Of a stretch of 41,210 bases of DNA, positions 2,963 through 39,762 are shown one piece after another. The notes below the pieces were generated by a model that was not told where the DNA came from, searched no databases, and worked only from the letters and a program-made list of their open reading frames with translations. Position numbers and translations under genes: made by a program. This stretch comes from a virus: the IMG/VR virus record IMGVR_UViG_3300007522_000028, positions 1-41,210 of that record. One strand, written 5' to 3'. Position 1 is the stretch's first letter, and each line of letters begins with the position of its first letter.

Positions 2963-2973
2963 ATTTGTATTTA

Positions 2974-3585: not shown

Positions 3586-5927
3586 TGCATGCTTTTTATT
3601 TTTTGTGTTATTTCAATTACAGTACTTCCACCGGCTACCATGTCTCTTACTGTTTCAAGTGCCTTGGTATCTACATTAATTTTTATATTTTTCGACATAA
3701 GTCTGTTAAATGAGTCATTTAGAAATAATATATCGGTGGCTAAATCGTGAGGTTTATTTTTCATTAAATAAGGGTTATCCTTAGATGATGATCCTATCTT
3801 CTTGTAGTTTCCATCACCGTCTGATTCAGTATAAAGATTAATACCATATATATTAAGTTCAGTTATATCCGCGTATGATGCCATATAAATCATTTGAACC
3901 CCGGACGTCGGTAAATTTAAAGATTTACGAGCTTCCTTAGATCGCATATGCATTTTACCTAGATTTCCAAGACTTCCCATATATTCAAAATGATTAATTG
4001 AGTTGTCAATTCCCAATTTATCTTTAACATTATATGTCAGCATATGTACCCTAGGTTTAAGTTGACTCGCCTTAATATTTCTAAATAGGTCTAAATCAAT
4101 AGTTGAGCATATATAATAATCTATTTTAGGAAGTTTAGATATTATTCCCCAATTGGCAGTCATAATAAATGAATTATCTAATCCAGTTATCATTTCATCA
4201 GTCATATTACAAGATGATGTAACAATTGACATTGATTTAACCTTATCGTATTTAGGAATTTCATTATTAGCCTTTATCCAAAACTCTTCAAGTTTAGTGT
4301 ACTTAGATTCATTATTATCTTTATTAGTGTGCCATGGTTTTGCACCAACATAATGAATTATTTTTACATCATGTTTAAAGTTTGAAAAATTTGAATCTGG
4401 AAAACATCTCTTTAGACAATTATAATTTGTATTAATCATTGTTACATTACCGTTAAAGTAATCGTTCATTATTCCCTGTTCAGCAATGGATATATCTTCT
4501 GATATTAATGAATATCCAAGTAAATTACGTTTATGATCTGATTGATCACCATTACATAGTATAAATCCTCCATTAAATGTTTTATATTCTGAAATTATGT
4601 TATAAACTCCAGCGTCTGGAGTAACTATAATATTATCAGTTAGGTGAAATATTTCTGAAACATCAGATAATATAACCATGTCGGCATCCAAGAAAAGAAG
4701 TTTATTGTATTTTTTAGAAAGTTCGAATGCATCATATGTAAAAAATGACGGTAGGAAACGTTCACGCTTCGTTCCTTTGTACATTTTAATAAATCTATTA
4801 AATACTCCTTCGTAGTCTCTTTCGTCTATATTTTTAAATATAATTTTGTCGTATAACTTAGATAATCTATCCATGTTGCCAATAGAGAGATCTGAGTGTT
4901 TAGAATTATATAAGACTATTATATCCCCATTGTACCATTTGTTGTTTTTTACAAATGATGATATCATCACACATGCACCATCTATAAAACTATCATTACA
5001 TACCGTACATAACCCAATTTTTATATTTTTTAGATCCAAGGTGGAATTAACTACTATATTATTAATGTGTTTTATACTTCTACCGTTTAATTTTCTAGCA
5101 TTTATATTAATTGATTTAGCATATAGTGTTTTAATCGCGATATGCCTCGGATTATTTAATACGCTTTGTGATTTATGTAATAAATGATTCCAGTATGTTT
5201 GTATTCTAGTATAATTACTACTCGAAAGTACTGATATTTCAACAAGTATTGCACTAATTGCATTAGAATATCTTACTAGGTTAGAGTACTTATTATTAGG
5301 AAATATTGATGCGTTTACTAAAGTAGAAGAGGACAATATATTAAATTCAATTCCTACCTCAATTGCGAATGTCTCAATGTATTCAAATGTTCCGTCTAGG
5401 ACTGATCCTACTAATTTTGAGTATATACAATTAAAATTATCATCACATATATATGATTCCGGAATAAACATTAAATTTGCATCGATATTTGATCCAATAT
5501 TTGGGAATCTATCAGATGTTGATGCAACTGATACAGTATCACCATTTAGGATCGTATGAATACTATTATTATTAAATACTACATTCTTGGAAATGTAAAT
5601 ATTACCCATTGATTTAATCTTAAACGCAAATATTTTAAAGTAGTCCTGAATCGTTACATATCCGTTTCTAATATCAACCTTGCGTTTTAATTCATATACA
5701 AATTCATCCGGTATTATAATAACTTCAACATCTTGATATATTAATTTAAGAATATTAACATTAGAATCATCTAATGGTTCAGATTCTAGTACTAATATTA
5801 TTATTTTTCCATCGAACCAAGTGTTATGATGGAAAAATGTAGTAAGCATCACTTTAAGTTGATGAAATGATTTATTATTACATTCACTTATTAAGCAAAT
5901 ATTATTTATATAGGTTTGATTATCCAT
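3582..5927 (-). CDS. Three-domain glycosyltransferase: degenerate GT8 + GT8 + GT42-like
   Basis: 781 residues, the largest protein of the cassette. Residues 8-290 and 303-555 start with similar sequence (ICLISECNNKSF... and IGLCTVCNDSF..., each followed by NxxW[FY][DN]G[KD]III) and appear to be a tandem GT8 duplication. Only the second copy keeps the catalytic marks: FLDADMVIL at 412-420 (DxD), FNGGFILCN at 451-459, EQGIMNDYF at 483-491 and IIHYVGAKPWH at 523-533. The first has lost DxD and may be structural. Residues 565-781 resemble GT42 sialyltransferases: LPTSGVQM, then ELNIYGINLY, then PHDLATDI (H727 sits where CST-II has its catalytic His). It could add a hexose and then cap it with a nonulosonic acid. 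Acceptor is unknown. Confidence 0.7.
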   Translation of the reverse strand: MDNQTYINNICLISECNNKSFHQLKVMLTTFFHHNTWFDGKIIILVLESEPLDDSNVNILKLIYQDVEVIIIPDEFVYELKRKVDIRNGYVTIQDYFKIFAFKIKSMGNIYISKNVVFNNNSIHTILNGDTVSVASTSDRFPNIGSNIDANLMFIPESYICDDNFNCIYSKLVGSVLDGTFEYIETFAIEVGIEFNILSSSTLVNASIFPNNKYSNLVRYSNAISAILVEISVLSSSNYTRIQTYWNHLLHKSQSVLNNPRHIAIKTLYAKSININARKLNGRSIKHINNIVVNSTLDLKNIKIGLCTVCNDSFIDGACVMISSFVKNNKWYNGDIIVLYNSKHSDLSIGNMDRLSKLYDKIIFKNIDERDYEGVFNRFIKMYKGTKRERFLPSFFTYDAFELSKKYNKLLFLDADMVILSDVSEIFHLTDNIIVTPDAGVYNIISEYKTFNGGFILCNGDQSDHKRNLLGYSLISEDISIAEQGIMNDYFNGNVTMINTNYNCLKRCFPDSNFSNFKHDVKIIHYVGAKPWHTNKDNNESKYTKLEEFWIKANNEIPKYDKVKSMSIVTSSCNMTDEMITGLDNSFIMTANWGIISKLPKIDYYICSTIDLDLFRNIKASQLKPRVHMLTYNVKDKLGIDNSINHFEYMGSLGNLGKMHMRSKEARKSLNLPTSGVQMIYMASYADITELNIYGINLYTESDGDGNYKKIGSSSKDNPYLMKNKPHDLATDILFLNDSFNRLMSKNIKINVDTKALETVRDMVAGGSTVIEITQKIKSMQ

Positions 5928-6549
5928 TTAGTTTATCTAAGTCATGTTGAGTATCAACATCAATTACATTATTTTTTATCTCCATGAACATCGTGTCCTT
6001 ATTATATAAGTTGTCATTTAATTTATTTAATACAGAAGGTCTGAATATCGCAATAAAGTGACTGATTTCAAAACACGTTGGGTAATCTTGACGTCTATAT
6101 AGATTATGATAGAATAGCTGTGATCCTTTATTATCATCATCTTCCTTCAACATTAGAAATGGAGATGTTTCTAATTCTTTTTTACAAAGTACTGAATCTG
6201 CATTATTATCAAACATAAATTTCCACGCATTAGTAACGTCTTTCCATGTTCGTTCAGGATATGTTAGGTACAACATACATGTGTCAGCATATCGATTTGG
6301 TCCAAGTTGAGATACTAAATATTCCATGACTTCTTTAGTTGATGTGGTATCAGTTGATATTTCATCAGGGCGAATTACAACATTAAAGTTATATGTCTCA
6401 GCCAATGTAGCTATTTCCATATCATCGGTTATAACATATACTAAATTTGCCATTTCTACTGGAATAATATCAGCAGTATGCTGAAATAACTTTCTATTCT
6501 TAAATGGAAGACCCTTTGATCCCTTTCGTGCAGGTATTGCTATTATCAT
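5920..6549 (-). CDS. neuA: NeuA-like CMP-nonulosonic acid cytidylyltransferase
   Basis: 209 residues. The N-terminus IIAIPARKGSKGLPFKN is the diagnostic nucleotide-binding P-loop of CMP-sialic acid synthetases. It is followed by LVYVITDDMEIATLAETY, VIRPDEISTDTTSTKEVM and LYLTYPERT in the family order, and ends with VIDVDTQHDLDKL, a typical family C-terminus. It activates a nine-carbon acid with CTP to the CMP-sugar donor used by sialyltransferases. It overlaps its upstream neighbour by 4 nt and the glycosyltransferase by 8 nt. CMP-Kdo synthetases are related, but together with NeuB and GT42-like domains a nonulosonic acid substrate is the better fit. Confidence 0.85.
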   Translation of the reverse strand: MIIAIPARKGSKGLPFKNRKLFQHTADIIPVEMANLVYVITDDMEIATLAETYNFNVVIRPDEISTDTTSTKEVMEYLVSQLGPNRYADTCMLYLTYPERTWKDVTNAWKFMFDNNADSVLCKKELETSPFLMLKEDDDNKGSQLFYHNLYRRQDYPTCFEISHFIAIFRPSVLNKLNDNLYNKDTMFMEIKNNVIDVDTQHDLDKLNG

Positions 6550-7160
6550 AATTCTTTAAATTCTTCGATGCTCATATATGGAATAACATCTATTTTACTT
6601 TGTTTACTTAAGTTGTATAATTCAACTCCTCTCTTTGCCAGTTCTTCTTTAATGTGATTATATCCCCATAATAAATCTGGAAGATACCTCATTCTAGCTA
6701 ATGAATGCTGACCATCCCTTTGAGCATAGAAATGTCCATCCGTAAAATCTACTCCGATTATTCCTATTTTCTTTGCACCTAATTTATATGCTACATTAAT
6801 TGCAGTATATGGTGAGTTTAAAAAATGGTCAACTTTATCTGGAACATCTAGATGAGCTGCTCCCTTTGCTCCTAAATCAAAATGAACTAGTCTTGGATGT
6901 CTCCATCCTCCAACACATGTAAGCAGATATTTATAATCTGTTTCATTTATTGCTTTCTTTCTTTTATCATTAAATCGATTAGGATGATCAGTTACTAAAT
7001 TGTAGGTCGGAGGAAATAATGCCGGTACATCATTTACTCCAATAGTAATGAAATCCATATAATATGGCTCAAAATCAATTAGTGATATTCCACATCCACA
7101 GACGACTATTTTTTCGCCTTCGTGAATATTGTGAAAGTCTATAAATTTCTTTGGCAACAT
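6546..7160 (-). CDS. GT42/DUF115-like Rossmann-fold protein, first gene of glycan operon
   Basis: 204 residues. GEKIVVCGCGISLIDF followed by DFITIGVNDV...PTYNLVTDHP gives the N-terminal nucleotide-binding pattern. SPYTAINVAYKLGAKKIGIIGVDFT and a following GQH parallel the TSG...GIDFY...H layout of CST-type sialyltransferases. ELYNLSKQSKIDVIPY aligns with their C-terminal strand. It may be a third sialyltransferase-like enzyme or a DUF115/MAF-type glycosylation factor. Its start at 7160 is 67 nt from the divergent J-domain gene, so the operon promoter should lie at 7161-7228. Confidence 0.5.
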   Translation of the reverse strand: MLPKKFIDFHNIHEGEKIVVCGCGISLIDFEPYYMDFITIGVNDVPALFPPTYNLVTDHPNRFNDKRKKAINETDYKYLLTCVGGWRHPRLVHFDLGAKGAAHLDVPDKVDHFLNSPYTAINVAYKLGAKKIGIIGVDFTDGHFYAQRDGQHSLARMRYLPDLLWGYNHIKEELAKRGVELYNLSKQSKIDVIPYMSIEEFKEL

Positions 7161-11993: not shown

Positions 11994-12464
11994 ATGAAGC
12001 ATATAACGATAGAAAAATATCAATATCTTCTTAGAATAGTGGTTATTATATTAGCCGCTATTTTTCCGTTTATATGTTTAATATCCCATGGATATCTTCC
12101 TTCGCTATCTAGCTATTGGAATACTGAATTACAACCTCTATTTATTATAGCAAATGCAGCTACTGCGTATTATTTATATTCTCTACCAAAATGGAGAATG
12201 TCAGCATTGATGCTATTAATGTTGACGTCATTCTCGTTAACGTTATTTCCAGGAATGCATAATATACTAGCAGTACTATTCTTTATTATTAACGTGTACC
12301 CATTGGTTAAAACGAATCATTTTAGATGGTGCATATCGATATACTTAGTATCTCTATTAGCGTTACCGTTTAGTATGATGATTGCAGAAATTATAGCGAT
12401 TGATACACTTTGCTTATATCACCTTTTATTTTTAAATAAGGCATATTCTCTTTCTATTCATTAA
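11994..12464 (+). CDS. Integral membrane protein, about five transmembrane segments
   Basis: 156 residues, mostly hydrophobic. Probable membrane segments are near residues 12-33, 45-62, 68-85, 88-104 and 112-145, with few charged loops. There is no signal-peptide cleavage site and no recognised catalytic motif. It has its own late promoter and stands alone between the capsid terminator and the convergent thymidylate synthase gene, whose end it overlaps by 4 nt. Possible roles are a holin-like or superinfection-exclusion protein, but it is larger and has more membrane segments than most holins. Not recognised. Confidence 0.65.
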   Translation: MKHITIEKYQYLLRIVVIILAAIFPFICLISHGYLPSLSSYWNTELQPLFIIANAATAYYLYSLPKWRMSALMLLMLTSFSLTLFPGMHNILAVLFFIINVYPLVKTNHFRWCISIYLVSLLALPFSMMIAEIIAIDTLCLYHLLFLNKAYSLSIH

Positions 12465-13552
12465 ACTGCCATACGTACGTTTTTCCAATTAGGATAAGAT
12501 TCATATCCTTCAATTGTGAAATCTTCTAATTTATATTCGAAGATATTCTTTTTGACATATGTTGCAGATATCGAACATTCGGACTCGTCCACATTTCTAT
12601 GTCCGTTTAATTTTAAAGTAGGGGCTTTATATTTAAATGCATCACGAGTTAATTGCTCTTTAGCCAGGTCAATATGATTCTCGTATATATGTACATTAGT
12701 AAGATCTCCAATAAGTTTACCAGGGATCATGTTTGATTGATCCGCAAGCATGTGTAATAGGAATGCGTAAGATGCTATATTAAAAGGTAATCCTAGGAAA
12801 GTATCTACAGATCTTTGGTGCCATTTTAAAGATATTCTTCGTTTAGGAATTCCAGCTTTATCCATATCATCTGAATATGTATCGCTATTATTAATCTCCC
12901 ATTTAGCATCAGTATCTTCTACAGTTTCTCCAAAATTAGCGGTGTATATTTCGTTTCGTTCAGCGTGAGTTAATTCATCAGTATAGACTTCAAATGCCCA
13001 GTGACAAGGAGGAAGACACATACCAGGAATATCTGCAATGTTCCATGCTGATACCATCATTCGTCTATCGTCTGGACTATTCTTCAACTTATCCATTAAT
13101 TGAGAAATTTGATTGATACTATCAGTGTGGAGTTTTATTTCTGATCTATCAATAGTTTCCCAATTGACCCACTGCTTTCCATATACTGGTCCCATGTCCC
13201 ATACTTTAGGATCCATTGAAGTATCATCAACTTTAGCTTTCATCTCTTCTAGAGAATATGGACTAGAACATGATTTAGCATACTTGTCGTACCAATTACC
13301 ATCCCACACTTTAATATCACGAGCCCATAGATCTCTAATGTCAGTGGATCCAGTTAGGAACCATAACAATTCTCCAATAATTCCTTTAGTATACATCTTC
13401 TTTGTAGTAATCATGGGAAATCCCTGATTCATGTCGAGTTCTAATGTATGGTTGAATATTGAAACCGTGTCGATTCCAGTTCTGTTTTCTTTTACTGTTC
13501 CTTCATCAAGGATACGTTGTAATAGCTTGTGATATTCGTGAGTTGCTTGCAT
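12461..13552 (-). CDS. thyA: Thymidylate synthase ThyA
   Basis: 363 residues. Converts dUMP to dTMP with methylenetetrahydrofolate. Conserved blocks: ELLWFLTGSTD, GPVYGKQWVNW, PDDRRMMVSAWN, CLPPCHWAFEVY with catalytic C183, QRSVDTFLGLPFNIASYA with the dUMP-specifying N258, and DVHIY-type NVHIYENHIDLAKEQL. E. coli ThyA is 264 residues. The extra length includes an insertion at about residues 190-237, between the catalytic Cys and the QRS motif, plus a longer N-terminal central loop. The residues needed for catalysis are intact. It begins the minus-strand end of the operon running from 24290 and converges on the membrane gene. T4 also carries a thymidylate synthase gene (td). Confidence 0.95.
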   Translation of the reverse strand: MQATHEYHKLLQRILDEGTVKENRTGIDTVSIFNHTLELDMNQGFPMITTKKMYTKGIIGELLWFLTGSTDIRDLWARDIKVWDGNWYDKYAKSCSSPYSLEEMKAKVDDTSMDPKVWDMGPVYGKQWVNWETIDRSEIKLHTDSINQISQLMDKLKNSPDDRRMMVSAWNIADIPGMCLPPCHWAFEVYTDELTHAERNEIYTANFGETVEDTDAKWEINNSDTYSDDMDKAGIPKRRISLKWHQRSVDTFLGLPFNIASYAFLLHMLADQSNMIPGKLIGDLTNVHIYENHIDLAKEQLTRDAFKYKAPTLKLNGHRNVDESECSISATYVKKNIFEYKLEDFTIEGYESYPNWKNVRMAV

Positions 13553-16684: not shown

Positions 16685-16929
16685 TTACCGTAATATTCAT
16701 TTTGGCTTTCCATATTACTATCATCTCTAAAGTCTCCGCTACTTTTAGTAGATACTGGTTCGTCTATAAATTTTCGAATATCATCTGCGTCCATTCCATT
16801 TGGAAAACAAATGTACTTAGATTTATCAGGATGCATATTTGAAATATTATCCTTATCCGATTGGTTTAATATGATGACGATAGGCTCGTTCTCCGCATCA
16901 TGTATCTTATTTCCTATTTTTACTTTCAT
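16681..16929 (-). CDS. Hypothetical protein, 82 residues
   Basis: A small acidic protein with an N-terminal beta region (MKVKIGNKIHDAENEPIVIILNQSDKDNI), a CFPNGMDADDIRKFID segment and a disordered Ser/Asn-rich tail. No function is recognised. Its start overlaps the end of the HNH endonuclease gene by 23 nt, which suggests the endonuclease was inserted upstream of an existing gene or its 3' end extended into it. It couples to the SLOG gene by a 4-nt overlap. Confidence 0.55.
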   Translation of the reverse strand: MKVKIGNKIHDAENEPIVIILNQSDKDNISNMHPDKSKYICFPNGMDADDIRKFIDEPVSTKSSGDFRDDSNMESQNEYYGK

Positions 16930-17695
16930 GATAGTAATCTTTCTTTTCTAGGTTGTGAATCTTTTCGTTTAATTCCTCTATTGTTATCCACGAATCAATA
17001 CCCTTACTTATATTAATTTTTGAATCTAATATCTGAAGATTTAATAAATGACCTATTATATTAGGTTTGATATTATTTTTAAATCCTTCATAGATTGAAT
17101 ATATATGATCTAAGTGGTTTCCAGTTCTAGATCTTCCTTCTAATAGCCAGCTAGCGTTGTATTTAAGTATAGATTTGTTAGTTTCTCTCCATACTTTCTT
17201 TTTATACAAATCAAAAGGTTTACGATTTTCATCCGATATCCAATTTCCATTCTCAATATTAGTATTCTTAGTTTTAGCAGTTCTAGTTTCTACGTTTAAT
17301 TGATACGGATTTTCAACTCCATATGTTAATATGAGATACTGACGTCGTTTATCGTTTAATTCCGTAACCTTAGATGGATTATCTTCTCCATATTTGTCAA
17401 TCATCCCCTGTCGAATAATAGGCAGATTCTTTTTCATATTATTAGAAGCATGTTTTCTCCATTTTGGATCTTTCATATAGTTGCCATTAGTATCTTCTAA
17501 ATAACATTTTCTACAGTTTTGTCCCCTTAAATGATTCTTAGGAGTCTGTTTAAATTCACCATGTCTATCGCATATAATAGATATCTTTGAATGTAATGTT
17601 AAATATTCAATATTATCATAATTATATCTGTTTCCGTGTATTTCTTTAAATCGCATCACTATTTCTTCCGTTGTTAATCTTCTACCACTTGCCAT
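16907..17695 (-). CDS. HNH homing endonuclease with N-terminal zinc-binding repeat domain
   Basis: 262 residues. Residues 1-70 have FKEIHGNRYNYDNIEYLTLHSKISIIC then RHGEFKQTPKNHLRGQNCRKC, the Cys-containing module (DUF723-like) common to phage HNH endonucleases. A basic linker contains two similar segments (MIDKYGEDNPSK and ILTYGVENPYQ), likely DNA-binding units. The C-terminal half has VWRETN...GNHLDHIYSIYEGF...GHLLNLQIL...NISKG, an HNH-type fold with the central DH pair. It lies directly downstream of the gp39-like topoisomerase gene, between it and gp52; T4 carries mobE near the corresponding place between genes 39 and 60. Probably a selfish element that spreads by cutting relatives without the insertion. 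Confidence 0.8.
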   Translation of the reverse strand: MASGRRLTTEEIVMRFKEIHGNRYNYDNIEYLTLHSKISIICDRHGEFKQTPKNHLRGQNCRKCYLEDTNGNYMKDPKWRKHASNNMKKNLPIIRQGMIDKYGEDNPSKVTELNDKRRQYLILTYGVENPYQLNVETRTAKTKNTNIENGNWISDENRKPFDLYKKKVWRETNKSILKYNASWLLEGRSRTGNHLDHIYSIYEGFKNNIKPNIIGHLLNLQILDSKINISKGIDSWITIEELNEKIHNLEKKDYYHESKNRK

Positions 17696-20041: not shown

Positions 20042-21631
20042 TTACTTCTTTTTTAAGTGCTTTATTATAAGAGCGTCTCTGAAATATTGAGGAACTCTTT
20101 TTTGCAATACTTGATCAAAACATGCATCTAATACGTATGTTTCGGCCCAATCGTCTTCATTCCTAATGGATCTTCCGTATGCTTGCATGATTTCTATCAG
20201 TGTCTTCCAGTTATACCAATCAGGCTTAGTCTCTAGTCTTCTCTTAGTTTTACTACTTTGAAGATTTGGGAATGGCACCTTTAATATAATTTGGAACCTA
20301 GATAGATCATCTTTTAAATCTATTCCATTCATCATTGAAGGGGAAACTAAAACAGTCTCAAATTCAGATTTAATGTGATGTTCTAGAGTATTCTCTCTAG
20401 TCGATGAATCATGTATTAATAATCTATCATCCTTGATATTTCTCCTAATCCAATCACTGAATTGATAATTACCAGTATGGATTATTCCTTTATTGTTTTT
20501 ATTCTTTTCAAGAATCTTCTTCATAACAGGAATTGCGGTTCTAAATGTTTCTTGCTTATCATAATATGACATCTTTCCGAATTTCACATAGATAATTGGT
20601 CTATTCTCAGGTTTAAATGGACATGGTAATTCTAAATAAGAATATTCATCGTCATCTAATCCCATTAGAAATGCCATCATTGAAGGTTCCAATATTGTTC
20701 CAGACATCATGATGACGTGATCATATTTGTTGAAGAACATTTCTTTCATGTATGCATTTCCCCAAATTGGTTCAACTAATATTCTAGCTTTTCCGTTCTG
20801 ATCTAAATCTTTTTCAAATACCCAGTTTGATTCGTAATTTGCTTTATCATTGATGAATCTATTATATTTGCACATAGATTTATCACAGTGATCAGCTTTA
20901 TTTACTAACTCTGCTCGTTTCTTCTTAGATCTAGTTTCCTTTGCGTCTTCTACTAGTTCAGTGATTTGACTTACTAATTTTGGGATTATAAGTTTTGATA
21001 CGTATTCTGAAAGTTGAGTAAGGTTTGTAATGCCATCAAAATCAGCGGCCATCCATGGTTCCCATATTCCTAATTTCTCCAAACTTCGTTCTGAGAACGT
21101 AGACGATACGAAATCACAGAATGCTTCTTCAAATGAGTGAGCCTCATCAATGATTAATACATTAGCTCCACGATCTGCCAATTTATCAGGAGCATACATT
21201 GCATATGCTGTAAGTAAGTGATAATTTGTTAGTCCAATTCTTTCACGTTGGAATTGAGATGACGCTATTGTATGAGAACATGATCCACATTTCTTTCCTT
21301 TAACCTTATTGAGCATCTTAGATTCCCCACATGGCATTAAATTAGTCTTACACCAATAACTATTGCTTCCCTTTAGGGATGCCATGAAATCGAAATCTCG
21401 AGTATATTGGTCTTGTAATAATTTAGTATTAGTGATTATGTCGAACTTTGCATCTCGATTAACTTCCTTTGAATACCAATCGGCTATCATAACCGCGGCA
21501 TATGATTTTCCGACTCCAGTAGGAGCATCAATCATCATAAATTTTTTGTCTTTGTCTATAGAATCTTTTACGAAATCTAAGATCTCTACTTGTTGTGGCC
21601 GTGGATCATGGTCTAGCTTGATATCCTTCAT
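20042..21631 (-). CDS. XPD/DinG-like superfamily 2 helicase with Fe-S cysteines
   Basis: 529 residues. Walker A APTGVGKS at 36-43, DEAH at 162-165, YGRSIRNEDD as motif VI, and an SGTI motif (MMSGTILEP). Between motifs I and II four cysteines, C94, C101, C115 and C118, occupy the place of the 4Fe-4S cluster in XPD and DinG helicases. Such enzymes unwind DNA 5' to 3' and act on R-loops, G-quadruplexes or stalled forks. It may replace T4 Dda/UvsW-type functions, which are not seen in the window. It overlaps the radical SAM gene by 1 nt, so two Fe-S proteins are encoded side by side. Confidence 0.88.
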   Translation of the reverse strand: MKDIKLDHDPRPQQVEILDFVKDSIDKDKKFMMIDAPTGVGKSYAAVMIADWYSKEVNRDAKFDIITNTKLLQDQYTRDFDFMASLKGSNSYWCKTNLMPCGESKMLNKVKGKKCGSCSHTIASSQFQRERIGLTNYHLLTAYAMYAPDKLADRGANVLIIDEAHSFEEAFCDFVSSTFSERSLEKLGIWEPWMAADFDGITNLTQLSEYVSKLIIPKLVSQITELVEDAKETRSKKKRAELVNKADHCDKSMCKYNRFINDKANYESNWVFEKDLDQNGKARILVEPIWGNAYMKEMFFNKYDHVIMMSGTILEPSMMAFLMGLDDDEYSYLELPCPFKPENRPIIYVKFGKMSYYDKQETFRTAIPVMKKILEKNKNNKGIIHTGNYQFSDWIRRNIKDDRLLIHDSSTRENTLEHHIKSEFETVLVSPSMMNGIDLKDDLSRFQIILKVPFPNLQSSKTKRRLETKPDWYNWKTLIEIMQAYGRSIRNEDDWAETYVLDACFDQVLQKRVPQYFRDALIIKHLKKK

Positions 21632-27721: not shown

Positions 27722-27969
27722 TTTTTCTTTGTCATTGATGATATGAATGTCTCTATTCTAGACTTCGCATCTGGTTCATTACTAGTTTTTGCCTTCTTTG
27801 GCGTCGGTAATATACAAGCAGATATGATTATAATTCCAAGCCATTGTATATAGCTTATTTCAACTGAAAATAAATCAACTAGTATGTAATTATAAACAAT
27901 CGTGCATATCAAGGATAAGATTCCTTGGCTTATTGCCCATGGTATAGCGTTATTAAATATAAACTTCAT
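27718..27969 (-). CDS. Small membrane protein, two transmembrane segments
   Basis: 83 residues. Hydrophobic segments near 8-30 and 40-55, then a basic cytoplasmic-type tail (PKKAKTSNEPDAKSR...TKKK). It lies between the TS-fold enzyme (17-nt overlap) and dCMP deaminase (4-nt overlap). Could be an early inner-membrane protein; no family recognised. Confidence 0.55.
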   Translation of the reverse strand: MKFIFNNAIPWAISQGILSLICTIVYNYILVDLFSVEISYIQWLGIIIISACILPTPKKAKTSNEPDAKSRIETFISSMTKKK

Positions 27970-28831
27970 CTCTCATATTATTTTGGATCCAACTTATTAA
28001 TGCATCAGAAGATACTGGTGTCGGATCATTATAGTATTCTTCAAGAAAATGTAACACACTAGATGGTTTTCCGTTTTGACTTATTAAATTCTCATTTAAT
28101 TTAGGAAATTCAACAGGGGTCCATTTTTTACTAATCATATCTTTTACAAGATCAAAATGTCTCTCATATATATGATATGAATCAACACTATGAGTATATG
28201 ATCCCATTTCTAAATCTGGATAGTATTTATGTAAGTGACTTAATGCCTGTTGTTGAAGGACGGTAAAGAATGCAATATCAGTCGCCGTTCCGAGAATAGC
28301 ATCATTACTTCGCATATTGATTGTTAGAAATAATTTATTATCTCTAATATGAAATATTCCATACATAGTACATACAAAATCCTTATTTGTACTGTATTGA
28401 TGTTCCGGAAGATTAAAGTGCATAATTGCCTGTCTTGAATCCTTATCCGCAATTAGTGAATCTAATGCCCATTCATATTGTGTATGTCCAAACCTATTTT
28501 TATTTTTAAATAATAGATTTCCATATGATGAATTAACTGTTCCATCTTCATTTTGAATCTGCTTCCAAAATGCTGCGTATTTACTGATGAATTCTACATC
28601 ATTTCTTCCAAGAAAATACCAAAGTAATTCTGCGGCTACATACTTATTTTGAGATCCTCGTCTTTCATTTTCATACATAGAAAGTAGAGGATTTTTAATC
28701 TCAAGTGAAACTTGAAGATTCTCTTTAATCTTCATTCCTCTCGGTTTAGTTTCAAATTGTGGATTTAAATATAAATCATTTAAGCTTTGTGAATATACTT
28801 CAGCAAAGCTATCTCCAGAATAAATTCTCAT
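27953..28831 (-). CDS. Thymidylate-synthase-fold enzyme, probable dCMP hydroxymethylase
   Basis: 292 residues. ELLWYFLGRND, catalytic C154 in FVCTMYGIFHI, MRSNDAILG at 173-181 and HSVDSYHIYERH follow the TS family order. The key residue is D185 in GTATDIA: canonical TS has Asn here (N258 in the thyA gene of this window) to bind uracil, while T4 gp42 dCMP hydroxymethylase has Asp (D179, 31 residues after C148). Here the spacing C154 to D185 is also 31. It may therefore make 5-hydroxymethyl-dCMP for modified phage DNA. Gp1-type kinase, dCTPase and DNA glucosyltransferase are not in the window, so a diverged TS remains possible. Confidence 0.65.
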   Translation of the reverse strand: MRIYSGDSFAEVYSQSLNDLYLNPQFETKPRGMKIKENLQVSLEIKNPLLSMYENERRGSQNKYVAAELLWYFLGRNDVEFISKYAAFWKQIQNEDGTVNSSYGNLLFKNKNRFGHTQYEWALDSLIADKDSRQAIMHFNLPEHQYSTNKDFVCTMYGIFHIRDNKLFLTINMRSNDAILGTATDIAFFTVLQQQALSHLHKYYPDLEMGSYTHSVDSYHIYERHFDLVKDMISKKWTPVEFPKLNENLISQNGKPSSVLHFLEEYYNDPTPVSSDALISWIQNNMRDEVYI

Positions 28832-31671: not shown

Positions 31672-32231
31672 TAATGTATTTTTCGTTTATTCATTTTTCC
31701 TTCTAGGAAACTATATTTCTTATTCAGTTCTTCTACTAGCTCAACTTGAATTTCAACATCTAAAGAATCAAATATTTTTTTGTAATCCTTTATTGGATCA
31801 TTTGAGTTAACATTTAATATGGAAGATAGTGCTTCTAATACATAAATTGGATTATAAAATGATTCTGTTGATCCATCCCCGTCTTTACTAACTTCCAATA
31901 TGTTCAGTATCTTAGAGAAACACCAATTGATCTCTTCTTTTGATAGTTTAAGTTTAGTATTTGAGTCCAGTTTATGTAATAAACTTCTTAGTTCTTTATT
32001 TCCTTCAATTAGTTTAAATATCTTAGTTAACCCTATATTATAATCTAGTGTTTCCTCATATTCATAGACATCCTTTAGATAATTATCTGCATAATTCGCA
32101 TTTACTGAAATAGATTGACTATATTCATAGTCATCTTCTCGATATCCATTGGCTTGCTTATATCCATTGTTGAATATTTTATCATCCTTTATTTTCTGTC
32201 TTCTTAGTTTTTCTTTATCATCATTTGTCAT
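31671..32231 (-). CDS. Hypothetical protein between helicase and gp47 genes
   Basis: 186 residues. A basic, Tyr-rich N-terminal third (MTNDDKEKLRRQKIKDDK, then YADNYLKDVYEYEE) is followed by a helical, acidic C-terminal part. No motif is recognised. It is coupled to gp47 by a 1-nt overlap and follows the helicase C-part by 15 nt, which suggests a replication or recombination accessory role without proving one. Confidence 0.55.
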   Translation of the reverse strand: MTNDDKEKLRRQKIKDDKIFNNGYKQANGYREDDYEYSQSISVNANYADNYLKDVYEYEETLDYNIGLTKIFKLIEGNKELRSLLHKLDSNTKLKLSKEEINWCFSKILNILEVSKDGDGSTESFYNPIYVLEALSSILNVNSNDPIKDYKKIFDSLDVEIQVELVEELNKKYSFLEGKMNKRKIH

Positions 32232-32246
32232 GTGTTAATGATTATT

Positions 32247-33473
32247 TTAAATCTGACTAAATAGTGCGTCATAATCATCATCTGGCATTTCGGCAGTAGT
32301 CTTAGACATAATACCTGAATTATCAGTTAATGCTGACATTTGTGGCTGAGTAGCATGATTCATTTCTGCTCTTACTTGATCAACCATTCCTGCTCCACTA
32401 TCGTCATCACTGTAATATTCGCTATTCATTCCAGATTCTTCTTCTAGTCTAAAGTGATCCTTATTCATAGCGTAAAATTTATAACTTTCTTCGTATCCGT
32501 TATCACGATTTGCGATAACTTTAATTTTCATTCTTCCTTCTAATGGACTTCTCATTAATCCATAAAGTGCATCTACTGTATGTACTAACCCGAACGATTC
32601 AGCAACTGAATCCATTCCTAAATCGAAGTTATCTACATCATCTCTTCTAATTTGAGTAGCTGATATAACGCACCATTCATTTCTCATTGCTACTCCTCTT
32701 AACTCCTCACATATACACTTTACCTTTTCATATAGACCAGCTTGATCTTTTATAGGTTTAAGTAAGTTTAGGTAATCTACGACAATAACTTTGAATTTCC
32801 TATTCAATTTTGTTTCAAGTCTAAGGAAATAATTTTCGATATCGATTGCAGTTGCTCCCCCTGTTGGGAACTCAACTATTTCTAAATGTCCAATATTCTT
32901 TCCTGAGTCCTTTAATTCCTGGATTCTCTTAGAAACTAATCCCATTTGAGTCTCATCATTGATATTCTCATATTCGTCCTTTGTAATATTAAGAATATTT
33001 GAACCGATACGTTTCATATAACTTCTATCAGCTAACTCAACTGTGACGAGACCTGTGTTATTTCCTGCTAGGAATGATCTGGCTGCACAATTTCCAAGGA
33101 CCATAGAATTATGTGATAATATGCCATTGGTATACATTCTATGGTTATCATCATTTATTGCTAAGTCATACATAATTTCAGAATATCCTAATGACTCACA
33201 TGATATAACTTCGTCTAATCCAGTTTCAGTTATTATAATATCTCCTGGCTTTAAATCTTTGGTAAATATTTCAGAATAATCTTCTAAAAATACAATATGA
33301 TCATCGGCACATTTTAAAGAATAATCAGGTGTTTTAATTTCCCATACTTCATACTCAGGAGTAACCATGATATTAGCAATATCAGACCATCCGGTATCAG
33401 TTAATATTTCATAATCGCCTACTTCTTCAACGCTTGTATATTCTCTGCGTATATTATCACTTTTATTAATCAT
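32247..33473 (-). CDS. 41: Split-intein C-part + C-terminal half of gp41/DnaB-type helicase
   Basis: 408 residues. Residues 1-122 are the C-fragment of an intein: block B CADDHIVF (H59), block F MYDLAINDDNHRMYTNGI and block G LSHN, then the +1 Ser123. Residues 123-408 are the helicase C-half: SMVLGN finishing the P-loop, Walker B FKVIVVDYLNLL, ISATQIRRDD, and the C-terminal KVIANRDNGYEES arginine-finger region. Splicing with the N-part at 34594-35361 would give GRPKVGK-S, a complete Walker A, and a helicase of about 504 residues (T4 gp41 is 475). Neither half alone has a working P-loop, so trans-splicing seems required for a functional replicative helicase. Ends in a disordered acidic tail. 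Confidence 0.9.
   Translation of the reverse strand: MINKSDNIRREYTSVEEVGDYEILTDTGWSDIANIMVTPEYEVWEIKTPDYSLKCADDHIVFLEDYSEIFTKDLKPGDIIITETGLDEVISCESLGYSEIMYDLAINDDNHRMYTNGILSHNSMVLGNCAARSFLAGNNTGLVTVELADRSYMKRIGSNILNITKDEYENINDETQMGLVSKRIQELKDSGKNIGHLEIVEFPTGGATAIDIENYFLRLETKLNRKFKVIVVDYLNLLKPIKDQAGLYEKVKCICEELRGVAMRNEWCVISATQIRRDDVDNFDLGMDSVAESFGLVHTVDALYGLMRSPLEGRMKIKVIANRDNGYEESYKFYAMNKDHFRLEEESGMNSEYYSDDDSGAGMVDQVRAEMNHATQPQMSALTDNSGIMSKTTAEMPDDDYDALFSQI
33108..33473 (-). other. IntC: C-terminal intein fragment, 122 residues
   Basis: From the ATG to the codon for the terminal Asn (33108-33110); the +1 Ser codon is 33105-33107. It carries blocks B, F and G including the penultimate His121 and Asn122 needed for C-terminal cleavage. 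It is much longer than the usual 35-45-residue IntC, so most of the intein fold lies in this fragment. Confidence 0.9.
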
Positions 33474-34575
33474 ATATAAATTTTAAACATCTGTTAATTT
33501 CTTCTTCTGGATTATTATAATAATCACGTTCCCATATCGTAATTATTTTATACCCATATTGTTCCGCAAGTTTAATCTTATTATCATCATACTTCCATAT
33601 CTCAAGAGCGGTCATCTTTTTAACACTATGATAATAATCCTTTTCGTATTTAAACGGATTACAGTGCCAGTAGTCTCCGTTGAATTCTATTATTTTCTTA
33701 GCATTTTTTAAAGTAAAGTCATATTTGAATGCTCCATTTTTATGTCTTATAAATTTTTCATCTTTACCACTTAATATTTCATATGAGTCATATAATTTAC
33801 TTTCTAGTATTTTGAAAAATTTATCAGATACAATAGATGTTCCTCTTCCTATATAAGTATCTTTATTAAATACTTTAGCTTTCCATATATCCTGTCTATT
33901 ATTCCATCGCTCTAGGCCGTTTTCTTCCCCGTACTTTTCAATACATATTTCTTTACTAAATGTAACTTGTCTATTTTTTAATCTGATCGCCGCTTCCTTT
34001 TTAGAATATCCTTTCTCTAGCCAGTATTCTATACAGCATGAGTTTCTTTTCTTAAACCATTCACTTCCTTCAGTTTCAAGTTTTTCCTTAAATTTATTTC
34101 TATTGTATTCCCCTTCATTCCATGCAAGTTTAATAGATTCTTCTTCTGAATGTCCTTTCTTTATCCAGAATTCTTTACAATACCTAGACATTGCCTTTAA
34201 ATAATCGGGATCCTCTTTTACGTTTTTAGCAAATGTTTCTTTTACTCCTATCGCCATTTGTGCATTAGAATCATTCATCTTATTATTGGCATCTTCTAGA
34301 CTTAATCCATTAACTTTCATTTGAAATTCAATAGAATTAGAAGCAAATGATTTTTTTCTAACTTCAGGAGTATTTAAATATTTTTTATATCCAAGTTTAA
34401 TACCATTAAATTCCGTTTCCTCATTAGAGAATGGACATATTCCTTCTCCTTCCTTTTTATAGTATTTATCGTAATAATCTTTTATCTCAGGAGTCGATAG
34501 TTTATGCGACCCTCTGATATGACGCTGTATATTATACATACTAAATTCTTTATCACAAATTTTACAGACTTCCAT
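33466..34575 (-). CDS. Free-standing homing endonuclease, Vsr-like, inside fractured gp41
   Basis: 369 residues. An N-terminal CxxC...HIRGSH element (C4, C7, H18, H23) looks like a C2H2 zinc finger. A central basic region repeats EYWLEKGYSKKEAAIRLK-type units (also FWIKKGHSEEESIKLAW), probably DNA binding. The C-terminal 85 residues have FKYDF, KIIEFNGDYWHCNP, KIKLAEQYGYKIITIWERDY, the pattern of very-short-patch-repair (Vsr/EDxHD-like) nucleases. This endonuclease family was described in fractured genes that carry split inteins. It lies exactly between the two gp41-intein genes and overlaps the downstream one by 8 nt. Probably mobilises the element into intein-free gp41 genes. Confidence 0.85.
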   Translation of the reverse strand: MEVCKICDKEFSMYNIQRHIRGSHKLSTPEIKDYYDKYYKKEGEGICPFSNEETEFNGIKLGYKKYLNTPEVRKKSFASNSIEFQMKVNGLSLEDANNKMNDSNAQMAIGVKETFAKNVKEDPDYLKAMSRYCKEFWIKKGHSEEESIKLAWNEGEYNRNKFKEKLETEGSEWFKKRNSCCIEYWLEKGYSKKEAAIRLKNRQVTFSKEICIEKYGEENGLERWNNRQDIWKAKVFNKDTYIGRGTSIVSDKFFKILESKLYDSYEILSGKDEKFIRHKNGAFKYDFTLKNAKKIIEFNGDYWHCNPFKYEKDYYHSVKKMTALEIWKYDDNKIKLAEQYGYKIITIWERDYYNNPEEEINRCLKFIYD

Positions 34576-34593
34576 ATCTTTATTTTTATTTAT

Positions 34594-35361
34594 CTATTTA
34601 GGCACGGCTAAATTAGGGAAACGTCTGCTAAACTCATATATTGTTATTTCTTCAACGATATTAGTAGTTTTGTTACGTATTTTCACTAACATATCGGAGG
34701 TCAGACATTTACCAACCTTCGGTCTTCCTTGGAATACTACTAATGTTTTAAGGTTCCATCCTCCACCTTGAGACTTATCAATAAATTCAAATCCAGATGG
34801 GGTTCCAATTTTAGCAATTTGAACGTGGGATTTTGGATCTAGGAAATTTAATCCATGTCCAGCATTACTAAAGCTTACTGATAATTTACCGTTTATATCA
34901 TTTCTAATCTTATCAGTTATTGAATCGATATTCTCCGGATTAATAGACGCAGTTTTCAAGAACGCTATCATATCAAACATCGTCAAATTCAGATTCCTTA
35001 GAAGCACGAATGACTTCACATATTTGTATAGGAAGTCGTAATTATAATCTCTAAGATTGAATAAATACAATTCGTCGAATGCATCATCATCTATGAAATA
35101 ATTATTAATTTCTAGATGTTTCTTTAGTTCGCTTCTATTTGGAATTTTGGAATGTTCCTTGAAAAACTTAAGAGCAAATTTATAGGCTTCATTTCGGTTT
35201 TCGCTACCAAAATATTTAGGAAGAATCATTGTGATCAACTCTTCTCTAGTAAGAGATGCATGATTATGAGGTTTTAGCTCATTCATGTCATTGTCTGGAT
35301 TCAGTACGAAATTCCAAACCATCGTTTCTAGGGAGTCAATATTTTCTGCGAAATCTATCAT
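34594..35361 (-). CDS. 41: N-terminal half of gp41/DnaB-type helicase + split-intein N-part
   Basis: 255 residues. Residues 1-218 are the helicase N-half ending in LVVFQGRPKVGK, which stops inside the Walker A P-loop. Residues 219-255 start with the intein nucleophile Cys (C219) in CLTSDMLVKIRNK and end at the stop codon, giving an IntN of 37 residues. The helicase part is helical (SLTREELITMILPKYF, YKFALKFFKEHSKIPNR) as in gp41/DnaB N-domains. It overlaps the upstream hypothetical gene by 4 nt. The endonuclease gene follows after 18 nt. It has to splice in trans with the 32247-33473 product. Confidence 0.9.
   Translation of the reverse strand: MIDFAENIDSLETMVWNFVLNPDNDMNELKPHNHASLTREELITMILPKYFGSENRNEAYKFALKFFKEHSKIPNRSELKKHLEINNYFIDDDAFDELYLFNLRDYNYDFLYKYVKSFVLLRNLNLTMFDMIAFLKTASINPENIDSITDKIRNDINGKLSVSFSNAGHGLNFLDPKSHVQIAKIGTPSGFEFIDKSQGGGWNLKTLVVFQGRPKVGKCLTSDMLVKIRNKTTNIVEEITIYEFSRRFPNLAVPK
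34597..34707 (-). other. IntN: N-terminal intein fragment, 37 residues
   Basis: Begins with the TGT codon for Cys at 34705-34707, right after the Lys of the P-loop, and ends in AVPK before the stop. It holds block A only. Canonical split inteins such as gp41-1 have an IntN of about 90 residues, so this is split far closer to the N-terminus. Confidence 0.9.
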
Positions 35362-35720
35362 TTACTTATGTTATAAAATTTATTAATCATTTTTTCGGTA
35401 ATGTACATGGATTTGTTATTCGGTTCAATTAAGTTTAGTGATATCATCTCCTTTATTTTGGACACTACGTATTCTTTAAACGCATCATCATTTAATTTAT
35501 CTCCAAATATATATTTTAAAGTTTTTGATGTAAACTTCATATTATCAAGACTAATAGTCTTTTTGTGATTGGATTCAATGACGCTAATTGTATACTTGAT
35601 TAACTCAAACCCAATGGAGTCCATGTCAATAAAGGAATCCATTAGGTGCATATTAAGGTGATATTTAATTTGTATATCTTCTTTAATTTTGAGATTCATC
35701 TGCTGAGTTTTCAAGTTCAT
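35358..35720 (-). CDS. Hypothetical protein between uvsX and helicase genes
   Basis: 120 residues, helical, basic and Ile/Lys-rich, no motif recognised. T4 places gene 40 (a small head-vertex factor) at the corresponding place between uvsX and 41, but I see no sequence evidence that this is the same. The start overlaps uvsX by 38 nt; an internal ATG at 35699 would shorten that. Coupled to the helicase N-part by 4 nt. Confidence 0.5.
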   Translation of the reverse strand: MNLKTQQMNLKIKEDIQIKYHLNMHLMDSFIDMDSIGFELIKYTISVIESNHKKTISLDNMKFTSKTLKYIFGDKLNDDAFKEYVVSKIKEMISLNLIEPNNKSMYITEKMINKFYNISK

Positions 35721-36924
35721 CTAATTCATTCTCAATTTGTAATTCTAATTGCTCGACCGCTTCGATATCAGCAAGCGAACTGTATTTGAATTTAGGCTGT
35801 ATTACATTTATATCTAATTCATCGATAACTGCGTCAGTAAATACTCTGCTTGTGAATATTTCTCTCCATGGAACAACATCTCCATTACATCTAAGAATAA
35901 AATTACGAGCTGATGCTTTAGGTAAGAAATAGAATTTCTCTTCATCTACTGTGAATTCAGAACATGATTCAGCTTCTGCTCCTTTTAGTTTTCCAAATTC
36001 CTTCTCAGTTAATTTGTTTCCTCTTTCTACTCCACAATTTTCCCATGATAGATAATCTTGTAATCCAACATATGGATTCATACCCTTGTGGAATGAAATA
36101 TGGATTTCAATCTTTTCAGGTTTAGCAATACGGTTCTTATCAGTTAAACATCTAACCTTTACACCAGTTCTATCTTTTCCAGTTTCATCTGACGATACAT
36201 CATCTTCTGCTTTCAATGCTCCTTTAGATAACATCAATACAACTGATGCAGAGTATAAAGGACCAGATCCTCCACTCATTGCCTTTGGAGTATATTGATC
36301 CATACTTGCATATGTATGAGATGTGAAAATCAATGGAATTTTTAAATTGGATAATTCTAATGTAAATGACTTGAATAATTGTCTAAGTTCTTTTGCTCTA
36401 AGGCCCATATCCTGAGCATTACTTCCCTTTGCTCTATCTTCAACTTCCTTATTAGTTTCAAGATGAGTAAGTGAATCAACGATTAACATTATTTTAATGT
36501 CTGGATTCTCTTCCTTCATTTTAACAATATCGTGGATAAAGAATTTAACTTCTGATATAACACCGATTCTTTTGTAATTCAAAAGATCCATATTAATTCC
36601 AAAGTTAGCGAAATCCTTTTTATCTAATGCTCCCTCTGTATCTATATAGAATACTGCGTAATCCATAATTTGAGCGTTTTTAATTGCGTTTAGACAAAGG
36701 AATGTTTTACCGGTTCCTGAGTCTCCTCCTATTCCTAAGCTTCTTGCGTTTGGATATCCTCCTTTAAGGGAGCCTGACATTTGAGCATTTAATAGATAAT
36801 TCCCAGTTGGAATAAATTCCGTGACGTCTGAGAATCCCATAAGTTTTACTCTTTTCTTGGTGATATTTTCCAGCTTATCATTAAATCTGCTAAATGCCGA
36901 TATTAAATCTTTAGTATTTGACAT
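35683..36924 (-). CDS. uvsX: Recombinase UvsX (RecA family)
   Basis: 413 residues (T4 UvsX is 391). Walker A GDSGTGKT at 67-74, YIDTEGALD near 93-101, Walker B IMLIVDSL at 145-152, LIFTSHTYASMDQYTPKAMSGGSGPLYSASVVLML covering the DNA-binding loop L2 region and nearby. Forms the presynaptic filament for strand exchange and recombination-dependent replication, with gp46/47 and gp41 encoded downstream. The acidic C-terminal tail resembles that of T4 UvsX. A candidate promoter lies 21 nt upstream. Confidence 0.95.
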   Translation of the reverse strand: MSNTKDLISAFSRFNDKLENITKKRVKLMGFSDVTEFIPTGNYLLNAQMSGSLKGGYPNARSLGIGGDSGTGKTFLCLNAIKNAQIMDYAVFYIDTEGALDKKDFANFGINMDLLNYKRIGVISEVKFFIHDIVKMKEENPDIKIMLIVDSLTHLETNKEVEDRAKGSNAQDMGLRAKELRQLFKSFTLELSNLKIPLIFTSHTYASMDQYTPKAMSGGSGPLYSASVVLMLSKGALKAEDDVSSDETGKDRTGVKVRCLTDKNRIAKPEKIEIHISFHKGMNPYVGLQDYLSWENCGVERGNKLTEKEFGKLKGAEAESCSEFTVDEEKFYFLPKASARNFILRCNGDVVPWREIFTSRVFTDAVIDELDINVIQPKFKYSSLADIEAVEQLELQIENELDELENSADESQN

Positions 36925-38319: not shown

Positions 38320-39762
38320 TCATTTTCTATTGAATTTTAAATCTTTAATTTCGTCCTGTGTAGTTATCCTAGCATTGTATAATCTATCTAGAATAACTCG
38401 AGCAACCGAGTCCTTTTGACTATCGAATAGTGTATCATTCTTAGTTGTAATTTCAGTTCCGTTGGTTTTAACCATTCCGATTTTTCCAAGGTAAGCAGAT
38501 GGACAACAGTTGAATTGCATCTGAATATTAGGGTACATAGATTTGAAATCATAACATGACACATATTTATAATATCCAGGAACTGGTGGCATTACGTATG
38601 CTCCAGCATAAGTTGAATCCTCTTCTCCATCATCGGATTTACTTTCATATCCTTTCTTAAGCATCTTTAATCCTGAATTTAGAAATTGGCGACACATTAG
38701 AACCTCGGTAATATGAACCGGACTGAATACTTTATTTACTTCAACTTCTGCGACGTTTGCAGTAGAGAATGCTACTTCTAATAATCCAAATTTATCTTCT
38801 AATAATTTAACAAGGATATTATCAATGATATTATAGAGTGTAAACATATACACATCTTGTTGGAATTCTCTAAAGCTTTTATATGGATGCTTTAATTTAG
38901 AAGTATTTAATGCTTTGGTCGCAATATAATCAAGAGTATAATTCTCAACTACTTTATAAGGCTTATATCCTGGATCAATGAACAGTTGCATATAATCTAC
39001 GATACCCATGTGAGTAGGTAATTTATGACGCTTGGAGAATGTTTTTCTAGATGTCATATTCTGTAATGAATCAACTCCTATTTTAGAAGTTCGATTCATT
39101 AGGTACTGCCAGTCAAAGTCAATAACATTCCATCCTGTTAAAAATGGTTGCCTAGGTAATACTTGATGGAAATAGAATTCTAATAATTCCTTTTCACTAT
39201 TAAAAAATTTATGCTTGATTGTGAAGTTCTGATCTAATATCTTTCTATCCCTTGGATCATGTGGAATTGTGTTCTTAAAGTACTCATTTACTTCAATTTC
39301 CATTCTACTTATATCATCATCACTTAATCCATCTGGATGCTCTTCTGAGTCCATGATTGATAGAACATAATTTACTCCCTCTTCATTACAAAATGATATC
39401 ATACCAACTGGCATTTTAACCTCTTCAGGTTTTGGAAATTCATCACTTGTTAATTTAATCTCGATATCAATGTAGTCCTTTCTTGGGAAATTATCGAAGT
39501 TATAGATTAGAGCTTTTTCATCTGGAGATAATTTATCGATAATTAACTCTTCTAATCTAGTTCGAGTCAGCCATTTAGGATCTGATGATTCCTGTTTAAT
39601 GAATGTACCGTCCCAGTTTTTATACTGAGATGGTCGGTTGTGTTGTACCCAATTAAATATTTCATGATCAGCTAAACGCTTTCGTATATATGCTATTTTT
39701 CCATCTGCATCATAATACGAAATCATTAAATCGTGATCCTGTACCTCTACTCCAATTATCAT
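38320..39762 (-). CDS. 43: DNA polymerase B family, gp43-like, N-terminal half only
   Basis: 480 residues; T4/RB69 gp43 is about 900. Exonuclease motifs are in place: YIDIEI (Exo I), GWNVIDFDWQYLMNR (Exo II) and YNIID near 310 (Exo III). The polymerase motif A, CYDFKSMYPNIQMQ, is present near residue 410. The protein ends 70 residues later (KDLKFNRK then TGA), inside the region that would be the fingers domain, so motif B (KxxxNSxYG), motif C (DTD) and the thumb are missing. No such motifs are seen in any other frame of the window. Some Aeromonas T4-like phages have gene 43 split into 43A and 43B; this would be a 43A with 43B elsewhere. No intein start is seen at the end. Confidence 0.88.
   Translation of the reverse strand: MIIGVEVQDHDLMISYYDADGKIAYIRKRLADHEIFNWVQHNRPSQYKNWDGTFIKQESSDPKWLTRTRLEELIIDKLSPDEKALIYNFDNFPRKDYIDIEIKLTSDEFPKPEEVKMPVGMISFCNEEGVNYVLSIMDSEEHPDGLSDDDISRMEIEVNEYFKNTIPHDPRDRKILDQNFTIKHKFFNSEKELLEFYFHQVLPRQPFLTGWNVIDFDWQYLMNRTSKIGVDSLQNMTSRKTFSKRHKLPTHMGIVDYMQLFIDPGYKPYKVVENYTLDYIATKALNTSKLKHPYKSFREFQQDVYMFTLYNIIDNILVKLLEDKFGLLEVAFSTANVAEVEVNKVFSPVHITEVLMCRQFLNSGLKMLKKGYESKSDDGEEDSTYAGAYVMPPVPGYYKYVSCYDFKSMYPNIQMQFNCCPSAYLGKIGMVKTNGTEITTKNDTLFDSQKDSVARVILDRLYNARITTQDEIKDLKFNRK

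What the first reader, a model, noticed from the sequence alone, without database searches (positions are those of the whole stretch)
32247..35361. Replicative helicase gene fractured by an N-terminally split intein with a Vsr-like endonuclease between the halves
The gp41/DnaB helicase is encoded as two genes. The upstream one stops 37 residues after the P-loop Lys with an intein-type start (Cys219). The downstream one starts with 122 residues bearing intein blocks B, F and G, ending HN before Ser. Joining them restores GRPKVGK-S, a full Walker A. A free-standing zinc-finger plus Vsr-like endonuclease lies between. Known fractured gp41 genes have inteins split near the usual endonuclease site (about 88 + 37 residues). 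Here the split is 37 + 122, like the rare atypical split inteins reported from phage terminase genes (AceL-TerL type). To my knowledge such a split has rarely been reported in gp41.
Basis: partly seen in the sequence, partly recalled or inferred. Interest (0 to 1): 0.92.

Follow-up and report, generated by a model that had tools for sequence, protein, structure and literature searches.

The report
Split-intein fractured phage replicative helicase gene
In this phage the DNA-replication helicase is made as two separate proteins that a self-splicing 'split intein' almost certainly joins, with a homing-nuclease gene lying between the two halves; the reading is right, but the same arrangement turns out to be widespread in phage ATPase genes.

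Summary
On the minus strand, one gene encodes helicase residues 1-218 (…GRPKVGK) plus a 37-aa intein fragment. A 369-aa free-standing nuclease follows. The third gene starts with a 122-aa intein fragment and then the rest of the helicase (SMVLGN…). Seventeen relatives (helicase 61-94% identical) have one uninterrupted gene joined exactly at GK|S, so the cassette is an insertion in Walker A. Both halves look selected to work (68 synonymous to 7 non-synonymous codon changes on this branch). The nuclease model matches Vsr (Z 11.7) and the Vsr-like homing endonuclease I-Bth0305I (Z 10.7). Best explanation: protein trans-splicing by an N-terminally ('atypically') split class 1 intein, spread by its nuclease; splicing and homing are inferred. 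It is not rare: 20 other distinct environmental gp41/DnaB-like loci carry the same split (fragment 32-47 aa) at the same GK|S, mostly with the same nuclease family. Related split inteins sit in Walker A of terminase, clamp-loader, SbcC/gp46 and ClpB genes; VidaL-type relatives lie in UvsX, PhoH and other gp41 genes, including Vibrio phage vB_VmeM-32. Verdict: real, correctly interpreted, new member of a known kind; the spread across P-loop ATPases is the more interesting part.

The parts
34708..35361 (-). N-extein: helicase residues 1-218, ending in Walker A lysine (GRPKVGK)
   Evidence: phrog_19 positions 180-366; uninterrupted continuation in 17 relatives
34597..34707 (-). IntN, 37 aa (CLTSDMLVKIRNKTTNIVEEITIYEFSRRFPNLAVPK), block A with Cys1
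   Evidence: 57% identical to L018 IntN over 30 aa; aligns with 20 other gp41 IntN of 32-47 aa
34594..34596 (-). stop codon (TAG) that ends the upstream half after IntN
33466..34575 (-). free-standing homing endonuclease gene, 369 aa, pI 8.7
   Evidence: family of 263 stretches in IMG/VR; in the kept loci nearly always followed by an IntC
34504..34566 (-). N-terminal C2H2-type zinc finger of the endonuclease (CKIC...HIRGSH)
   Evidence: weak Pfam match (E 0.013, below cut-off); Cys/His pattern kept in most full-length relatives
33469..33843 (-). C-terminal Vsr-like nuclease domain (residues 245-369; invariant D286, E297, D301, H304, E349)
   Evidence: model pLDDT 89; Vsr 1cw0 Z 11.7, I-Bth0305I 3r3p Z 10.7
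33108..33473 (-). IntC, 122 aa, blocks N2 to G, ending SHN; its ATG overlaps the endonuclease stop by 8 nt
   Evidence: (TIGR01443 above cut-off)
32250..33107 (-). C-extein: helicase residues 219-504, starting with Ser+1 of Walker A
   Evidence: (DnaB_C, 34.9 bits, cut-off 27)

Best explanation
A mobile cassette (IntN + free-standing Vsr-like homing endonuclease + IntC) has inserted between Lys and Ser of the Walker A motif of the phage's gp41/DnaB-type replicative helicase gene. The two helicase halves are translated from separate genes. IntN (37 aa) and IntC (122 aa) bind and fold into one class 1 intein (Cys1, block-B His, block-F His, penultimate His, C-terminal Asn, Ser+1), which splices the halves in trans into an intact 504-aa helicase with a complete Walker A (GRPKVGKS). 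The nuclease cuts cassette-free alleles in co-infecting phages so that repair copies the cassette in. Shown here: gene anatomy, exact empty-site alleles, conserved splice residues, purifying selection on both halves, Vsr-like fold, family membership. Inferred: trans-splicing in the cell and homing.
For: Exact anatomy. 17 relatives with a continuous gene at GK|S. Intein profile and PDB intein matches (VidaL, gp41-1, CatC, NrdJ-1). Aligned family of joined inteins with all splice residues. IntC is 48-56% identical to the inteins of 12 of 15 compared gp41 loci with the same site, whose C-exteins are only 31-40% identical, which points to horizontal movement. The helicase of this phage is closest to cassette-free genes, so the cassette is a gain. 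dN/dS 0.025-0.087 against intact relatives and 68 synonymous: 7 non-synonymous changes on the window branch. Endonuclease family invariants and Vsr / I-Bth0305I fold. Only one gp41-type gene in 138-207 kb relatives. No intron or other RNA family in the region. Net charge at pH 7 of IntN +1.8, IntC -19.
Against: No expression, proteomic or splicing data. The window is a 41-kb fragment, so a second intact helicase elsewhere in this genome cannot be excluded directly. No co-conversion tract is seen against the closest cassette-free alleles, so recent homing is not shown.
Confidence: 0.9

Rival explanations
1. The two pieces are decayed relics of a broken helicase gene, and replication uses another helicase.
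For: The window is a fragment, so another helicase gene cannot be ruled out; a gene matching phage DNA helicase families phrog_2488 and phrog_16 lies at 20042..21631, but it is not a DnaB type.
Against: Both frames are intact and under strong purifying selection. Splice residues are conserved across a family. Relatives of 138-207 kb have a single gp41-type gene.
Confidence: 0.04
2. The halves work as two non-covalently associated subunits without splicing, like natural gene fission.
For: Some phage genes are simply split in two.
Against: The split is inside the P-loop between Lys and Ser, so each half has only part of the ATP site. The intein fragments are conserved with all catalytic residues. 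All close relatives without the cassette are continuous.
Confidence: 0.03
3. The intervening DNA is an intron removed at RNA level, with an intron-type homing endonuclease.
For: Vsr-like I-Bth0305I is, from own knowledge, associated with a phage intron.
Against: No intron family match in 32000..36000; coding continues as intein on both sides up to the exact junction; homologous cassettes have the same protein-level junctions.
Confidence: 0.01
4. The halves splice in trans, but the endonuclease between them is no longer active and the cassette no longer moves.
For: No co-conversion tract relative to empty alleles; the endonuclease is lost in some relatives while the split is kept (L173, L174, L027).
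Against: The endonuclease frame is intact and keeps the invariant D286, E297, D301, H304 and E349.
Confidence: 0.2

Closest known systems
Fractured phage genes with split inteins and Vsr-like homing endonucleases (Dassa et al. 2009, NAR 37:2560; not held here, known from citations in PMC6892783 and PMC7090010 and own knowledge)
   Same: Host gene in two pieces, split intein halves at the break, free-standing endonuclease between
   Different: The known gp41 examples (gp41-1 88+37, gp41-8 94+50; PMC11766414) are split at the usual endonuclease position; gp41-1 sits at SGY|SSSD, not at Walker A
GOS-TerL and AceL-TerL inteins (PMC11766414)
   Same: N-terminal split; GOS-TerL IntN is also 37 aa; terminase inteins of the family found here are also at Walker A GK|T
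   Different: Host gene is terminase; GOS-TerL uses Ser1/Cys+1, here Cys1/Ser+1
VidaL intein (PDB 6vgv; 16-aa IntN)
   Same: Best solved relative (E 2.6e-9 with the family profile); fractured gene with a Vsr-like endonuclease between
   Different: In the contigs found here VidaL lies in UvsX, three residues upstream (GES|SGKS); IntN 16 aa
Fractured gp41 of Vibrio phage vB_VmeM-32 (KU160494)
   Same: gp41 in two pieces with a short IntN and a Vsr-like endonuclease between
   Different: IntN 27 aa, junction GVN|TGKS upstream of this site, intein only distantly related; the halves are not annotated
L018, L177 and 18 other environmental gp41/DnaB-like loci
   Same: Same GK|S site, IntN 32-47 aa, same intein family and mostly the same endonuclease family
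   Different: C-exteins only 31-40% identical to this one in the compared set

Membership tests
Class 1 split intein | Cys/Ser at position 1, block-B His, penultimate His + C-terminal Asn, Ser/Thr/Cys at +1 | tested here: met
   C1, CADDH, SHN|S, aligned with 21 others; TIGR01443 19.1 bits, cut-off 15.6
Class 1 split intein | Joining the exteins restores an intact host protein | tested here: met
   17 intact homologues continuous at the junction
Class 1 split intein | Trans-splicing activity | not testable with these tools
   Needs expression
Atypically (N-terminally) split intein | Short IntN (15-37 aa in known cases, PMC13014065) split between block A and block N2 | tested here: met
   37 aa; the alignment shows the break just after the block A strands
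Fractured gene with Vsr-like homing endonuclease | Free-standing endonuclease ORF between the two gene halves | tested here: met
Fractured gene with Vsr-like homing endonuclease | Vsr / EDxHD-type nuclease fold and acidic/His active-site residues | tested here: met
   Z 11.7 to Vsr and 10.7 to I-Bth0305I; invariant D286, E297, D301, H304, E349. Foldseek alone only E 0.04-0.06
Fractured gene with Vsr-like homing endonuclease | Cleavage of the cassette-free allele | not testable with these tools
   Needs enzyme assay
[quoted passage not shown]
   37 + 122 aa, site GK|S
gp41/DnaB-type replicative helicase | Homology over both halves and complete Walker A after joining | tested here: met
   phrog_19 E 3e-14 and 1e-29; DnaB-like helicase 8dtp E 2.9e-26 over residues 49-480

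The most novel reading that the evidence does not exclude
The gene is one instance of a single, largely undescribed lineage of N-terminally split inteins with Vsr-like endonucleases that has spread to the same Lys|Ser/Thr position of the Walker A motif in several unrelated or distantly related P-loop ATPase groups of phages (gp41/DnaB, TerL, gp44, SbcC/gp46-like, ClpB D1 and D2), with a sister VidaL-type branch a few residues upstream in UvsX, PhoH and gp41. Jumps between genes happened several times, perhaps because the endonuclease or the repair step tolerates different P-loop coding sequences.
Probability: 0.4. Interest if true: 0.65.

Novelty: new member of a known kind. Interest (0 to 1): 0.42.

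Why it matters
It adds natural short-IntN split inteins with Cys1/Ser+1, of the kind used for protein labelling and semisynthesis, from a gene where canonical splits are the textbook case. The census suggests that selfish cassettes repeatedly settle in the ATP-binding loop of several essential phage motors, where imprecise removal would inactivate the protein. That makes two questions testable: how such a cassette moves between unrelated ATPase genes, and whether splitting replication proteins gives the phage any control over their assembly.

Tried and rejected
Single-sequence AlphaFold2 of the endonuclease was useless (pLDDT 35); the alignment-based model worked. Searching the endonuclease by sequence against PDB found nothing relevant. 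Looking for a co-conversion tract around the insertion against empty alleles gave a flat identity profile. An intron explanation was tested with Rfam and dropped. The IntC tree could not place this intein: no well-supported set holds it, although labels cluster by host gene (10 changes against 29.7 shuffled). Papers that would settle prior art (Dassa 2009; Bachmann 2015) are not held, and Neugebauer 2017 could not be found in the library. From memory only, a 'VidaL T4Lh-1' intein in Neugebauer 2017 may already be an atypically split T4-like helicase intein. Host labels in the census rest on regular expressions plus Pfam checks of ten representatives; 'terL' there is a catch-all class. My motif search for the endonuclease undercounts it (L166, L167, L177, L179 and L196 have one on inspection).

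Full report
OBSERVATION. The upstream gene (34594..35361) encodes 218 residues ending GRPKVGK, then CLTSDMLVKIRNKTTNIVEEITIYEFSRRFPNLAVPK and a stop. The middle gene (33466..34575) encodes 369 residues. The downstream gene (32247..33473) encodes 122 residues ending ILSHN and then SMVLGN.... Its ATG overlaps the stop of the middle gene by 8 nt, which suggests translational coupling. The pieces match consecutive parts of one DnaB-like helicase profile (phrog_19 positions 180-366 and 367-592). Joined, they align with solved phage DnaB-like helicases over residues 49-480 (8dtp, E 2.9e-26).

EMPTY SITES. Seventeen IMG/VR loci (L001-L017) encode helicases 61-94% identical to the N part and 65-91% identical to the C part as one uninterrupted gene, joined exactly where the cassette sits. 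Relatives of 138, 176 and 207 kb each have a single gp41-type gene. The cassette is therefore an insertion, and this phage's helicase lineage is otherwise cassette-free in the loci seen. L002, 85% identical in gp41, has an empty gp41 but a related cassette in the uvsX gene next door.

SELECTION. Against intact relatives dN/dS is 0.025-0.087 for the halves (dS is near saturation, so these are rough). On the window's own branch, parsimony gives 68 synonymous and 7 non-synonymous codon changes. The insertion may be younger than part of that branch, so this supports but does not prove that the fractured gene is functional.

INTEIN. The C fragment matches the NCBI intein C-terminal profile above cut-off. 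A profile of the family finds VidaL, gp41-1, DnaX, CatC, NrdJ-1, a PolB intein (9hth, the Aes123 PolB1 intein according to PMC13014065) and PolB16 in the PDB. Aligning this joined intein with 21 others shows Cys1, the CADxH-like block B, and the SHN end followed by Ser or Thr. The break falls just after block A, as in the rare atypical split inteins, whose IntN is 15-37 aa (PMC13014065; GOS-TerL has exactly 37, PMC11766414).

ENDONUCLEASE. With 28 relatives the model reaches pLDDT 89. Residues 245-369 match Vsr (1cw0, Z 11.7, 2.6 A over 111 residues) and the catalytic domain of the homing endonuclease I-Bth0305I (3r3p, Z 10.7); another endonuclease-like protein (3hrl) also scores 10.7, and mitoribosomal or RAP-domain proteins follow at about 9. 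Foldseek alone gave E 0.04-0.06 for Vsr and I-Bth0305I as its first three rows. D286, E297, D301, H304 and E349 are invariant in the family. An N-terminal C2H2 finger is weakly supported.

HOW COMMON. Searching with the endonuclease and with the IntC profile gave 263 related stretches each (80 loci kept per search). In the kept endonuclease loci nearly every endonuclease is followed by an IntC. A de-duplicated count finds 21 gp41/DnaB-like loci including this one with IntN of 32-47 aa at the same GK|S, eight SbcC/gp46-like, six ClpB-like, four gp44-like, one other and 45 in a remaining class that is mainly terminase. Pfam checks of ten C-exteins confirmed ClpB, DnaB_C and terminase; SbcC-like ones gave only weak AAA_23/SMC matches and L241 none. 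A second branch, including VidaL, sits 3-5 residues upstream in UvsX, PhoH and three gp41 genes (L032, L104, L113; IntN 22-27 aa). L032 is the cultured Vibrio phage vB_VmeM-32, where neither half is annotated. gp41-1-bearing gp41 genes (L120) have a contiguous mini-intein at the upstream Walker A site as well as the canonical gp41-1 split at SGY|SSSD. In GenBank phages the closest inteins to this IntC are in terminase genes.

HORIZONTAL MOVEMENT. For 12 of 15 compared gp41 loci with the same site the IntC is 48-56% identical to this one while the C-exteins are 31-40% identical (the other three have IntC 36-40%). The IntC tree clusters by host gene (10 changes against 29.7 in shuffles) yet needs several changes of gene. 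So cassettes mostly move between equivalent genes of different phages and occasionally to new genes.

KNOWN OR NEW. Insertion between the invariant Lys and Thr of the P-loop is described as the 'classic' P-loop intein site (PMC5050341). Fractured genes with a new endonuclease family were described in 2009 (Dassa et al., cited in PMC6892783). Atypically split inteins are known in TerL and PolB and as VidaL (PMC13014065), which lies in UvsX in the contigs found here. The combination in gp41 at GK|S was not found in the papers held here, but key papers are not held, and from memory one (Neugebauer 2017) may report an atypically split T4-like helicase intein. I therefore call it a new member of a known kind. 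The breadth of the Walker A family is the part that a specialist might find new.

LIMITS. No splicing or homing experiment was possible; the genome is incomplete; census labels are partly by motif; the tree placement of this intein is unresolved.

Noticed in passing
L018 (3300042558_005120) 1488..3154 and 3453..7056: uvsX immediately upstream of the fractured gp41 is itself split by a canonical-type intein, so two neighbouring replication genes are fractured; the same contig (G004:C1:11968-12342) has a further IntC-like match in another ORF.
   Followed up: partly
L002 (3300027976_000150) 1982..5016: A close relative of this phage has an empty gp41 but carries a related IntN + endonuclease + IntC cassette in the adjacent uvsX gene.
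   Followed up: partly
L032 (KU160494.1, Vibrio phage vB_VmeM-32) 628..6005: The deposited annotation misses both halves of the gp41 helicase (fractured, 27-aa IntN) and calls the Vsr-like endonuclease hypothetical; uvsX is also split, with a SegG-like gene between its halves.
   Followed up: partly
L027, L173, L174: Split retained but endonuclease apparently lost (uvsX/VidaL, gp41 and SbcC-like cases); in L174 the IntN and IntC frames overlap.
   Followed up: partly
L120 1480..3267: gp41 with a contiguous mini-intein at the upstream Walker A site plus a canonical gp41-1 IntN in the same ORF: cis and split inteins in one gene.
   Followed up: no
window 12461..13552 and 27953..28831: Two separate genes matching thymidylate synthase families in one phage fragment (phrog_160, E 1e-96 and 4e-41).
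   Followed up: no
window 38320..39762: DNA polymerase gene of only 480 aa that matches the N-terminal half of phrog_262 but nearly all of phrog_2062 (502 aa); the polymerase may be encoded in two genes. No intein signature was seen at its C-terminal end.
   Followed up: no
window 16907..17695: HNH-type endonuclease-like gene lying between the topoisomerase II subunit genes, another likely homing gene.
   Followed up: no
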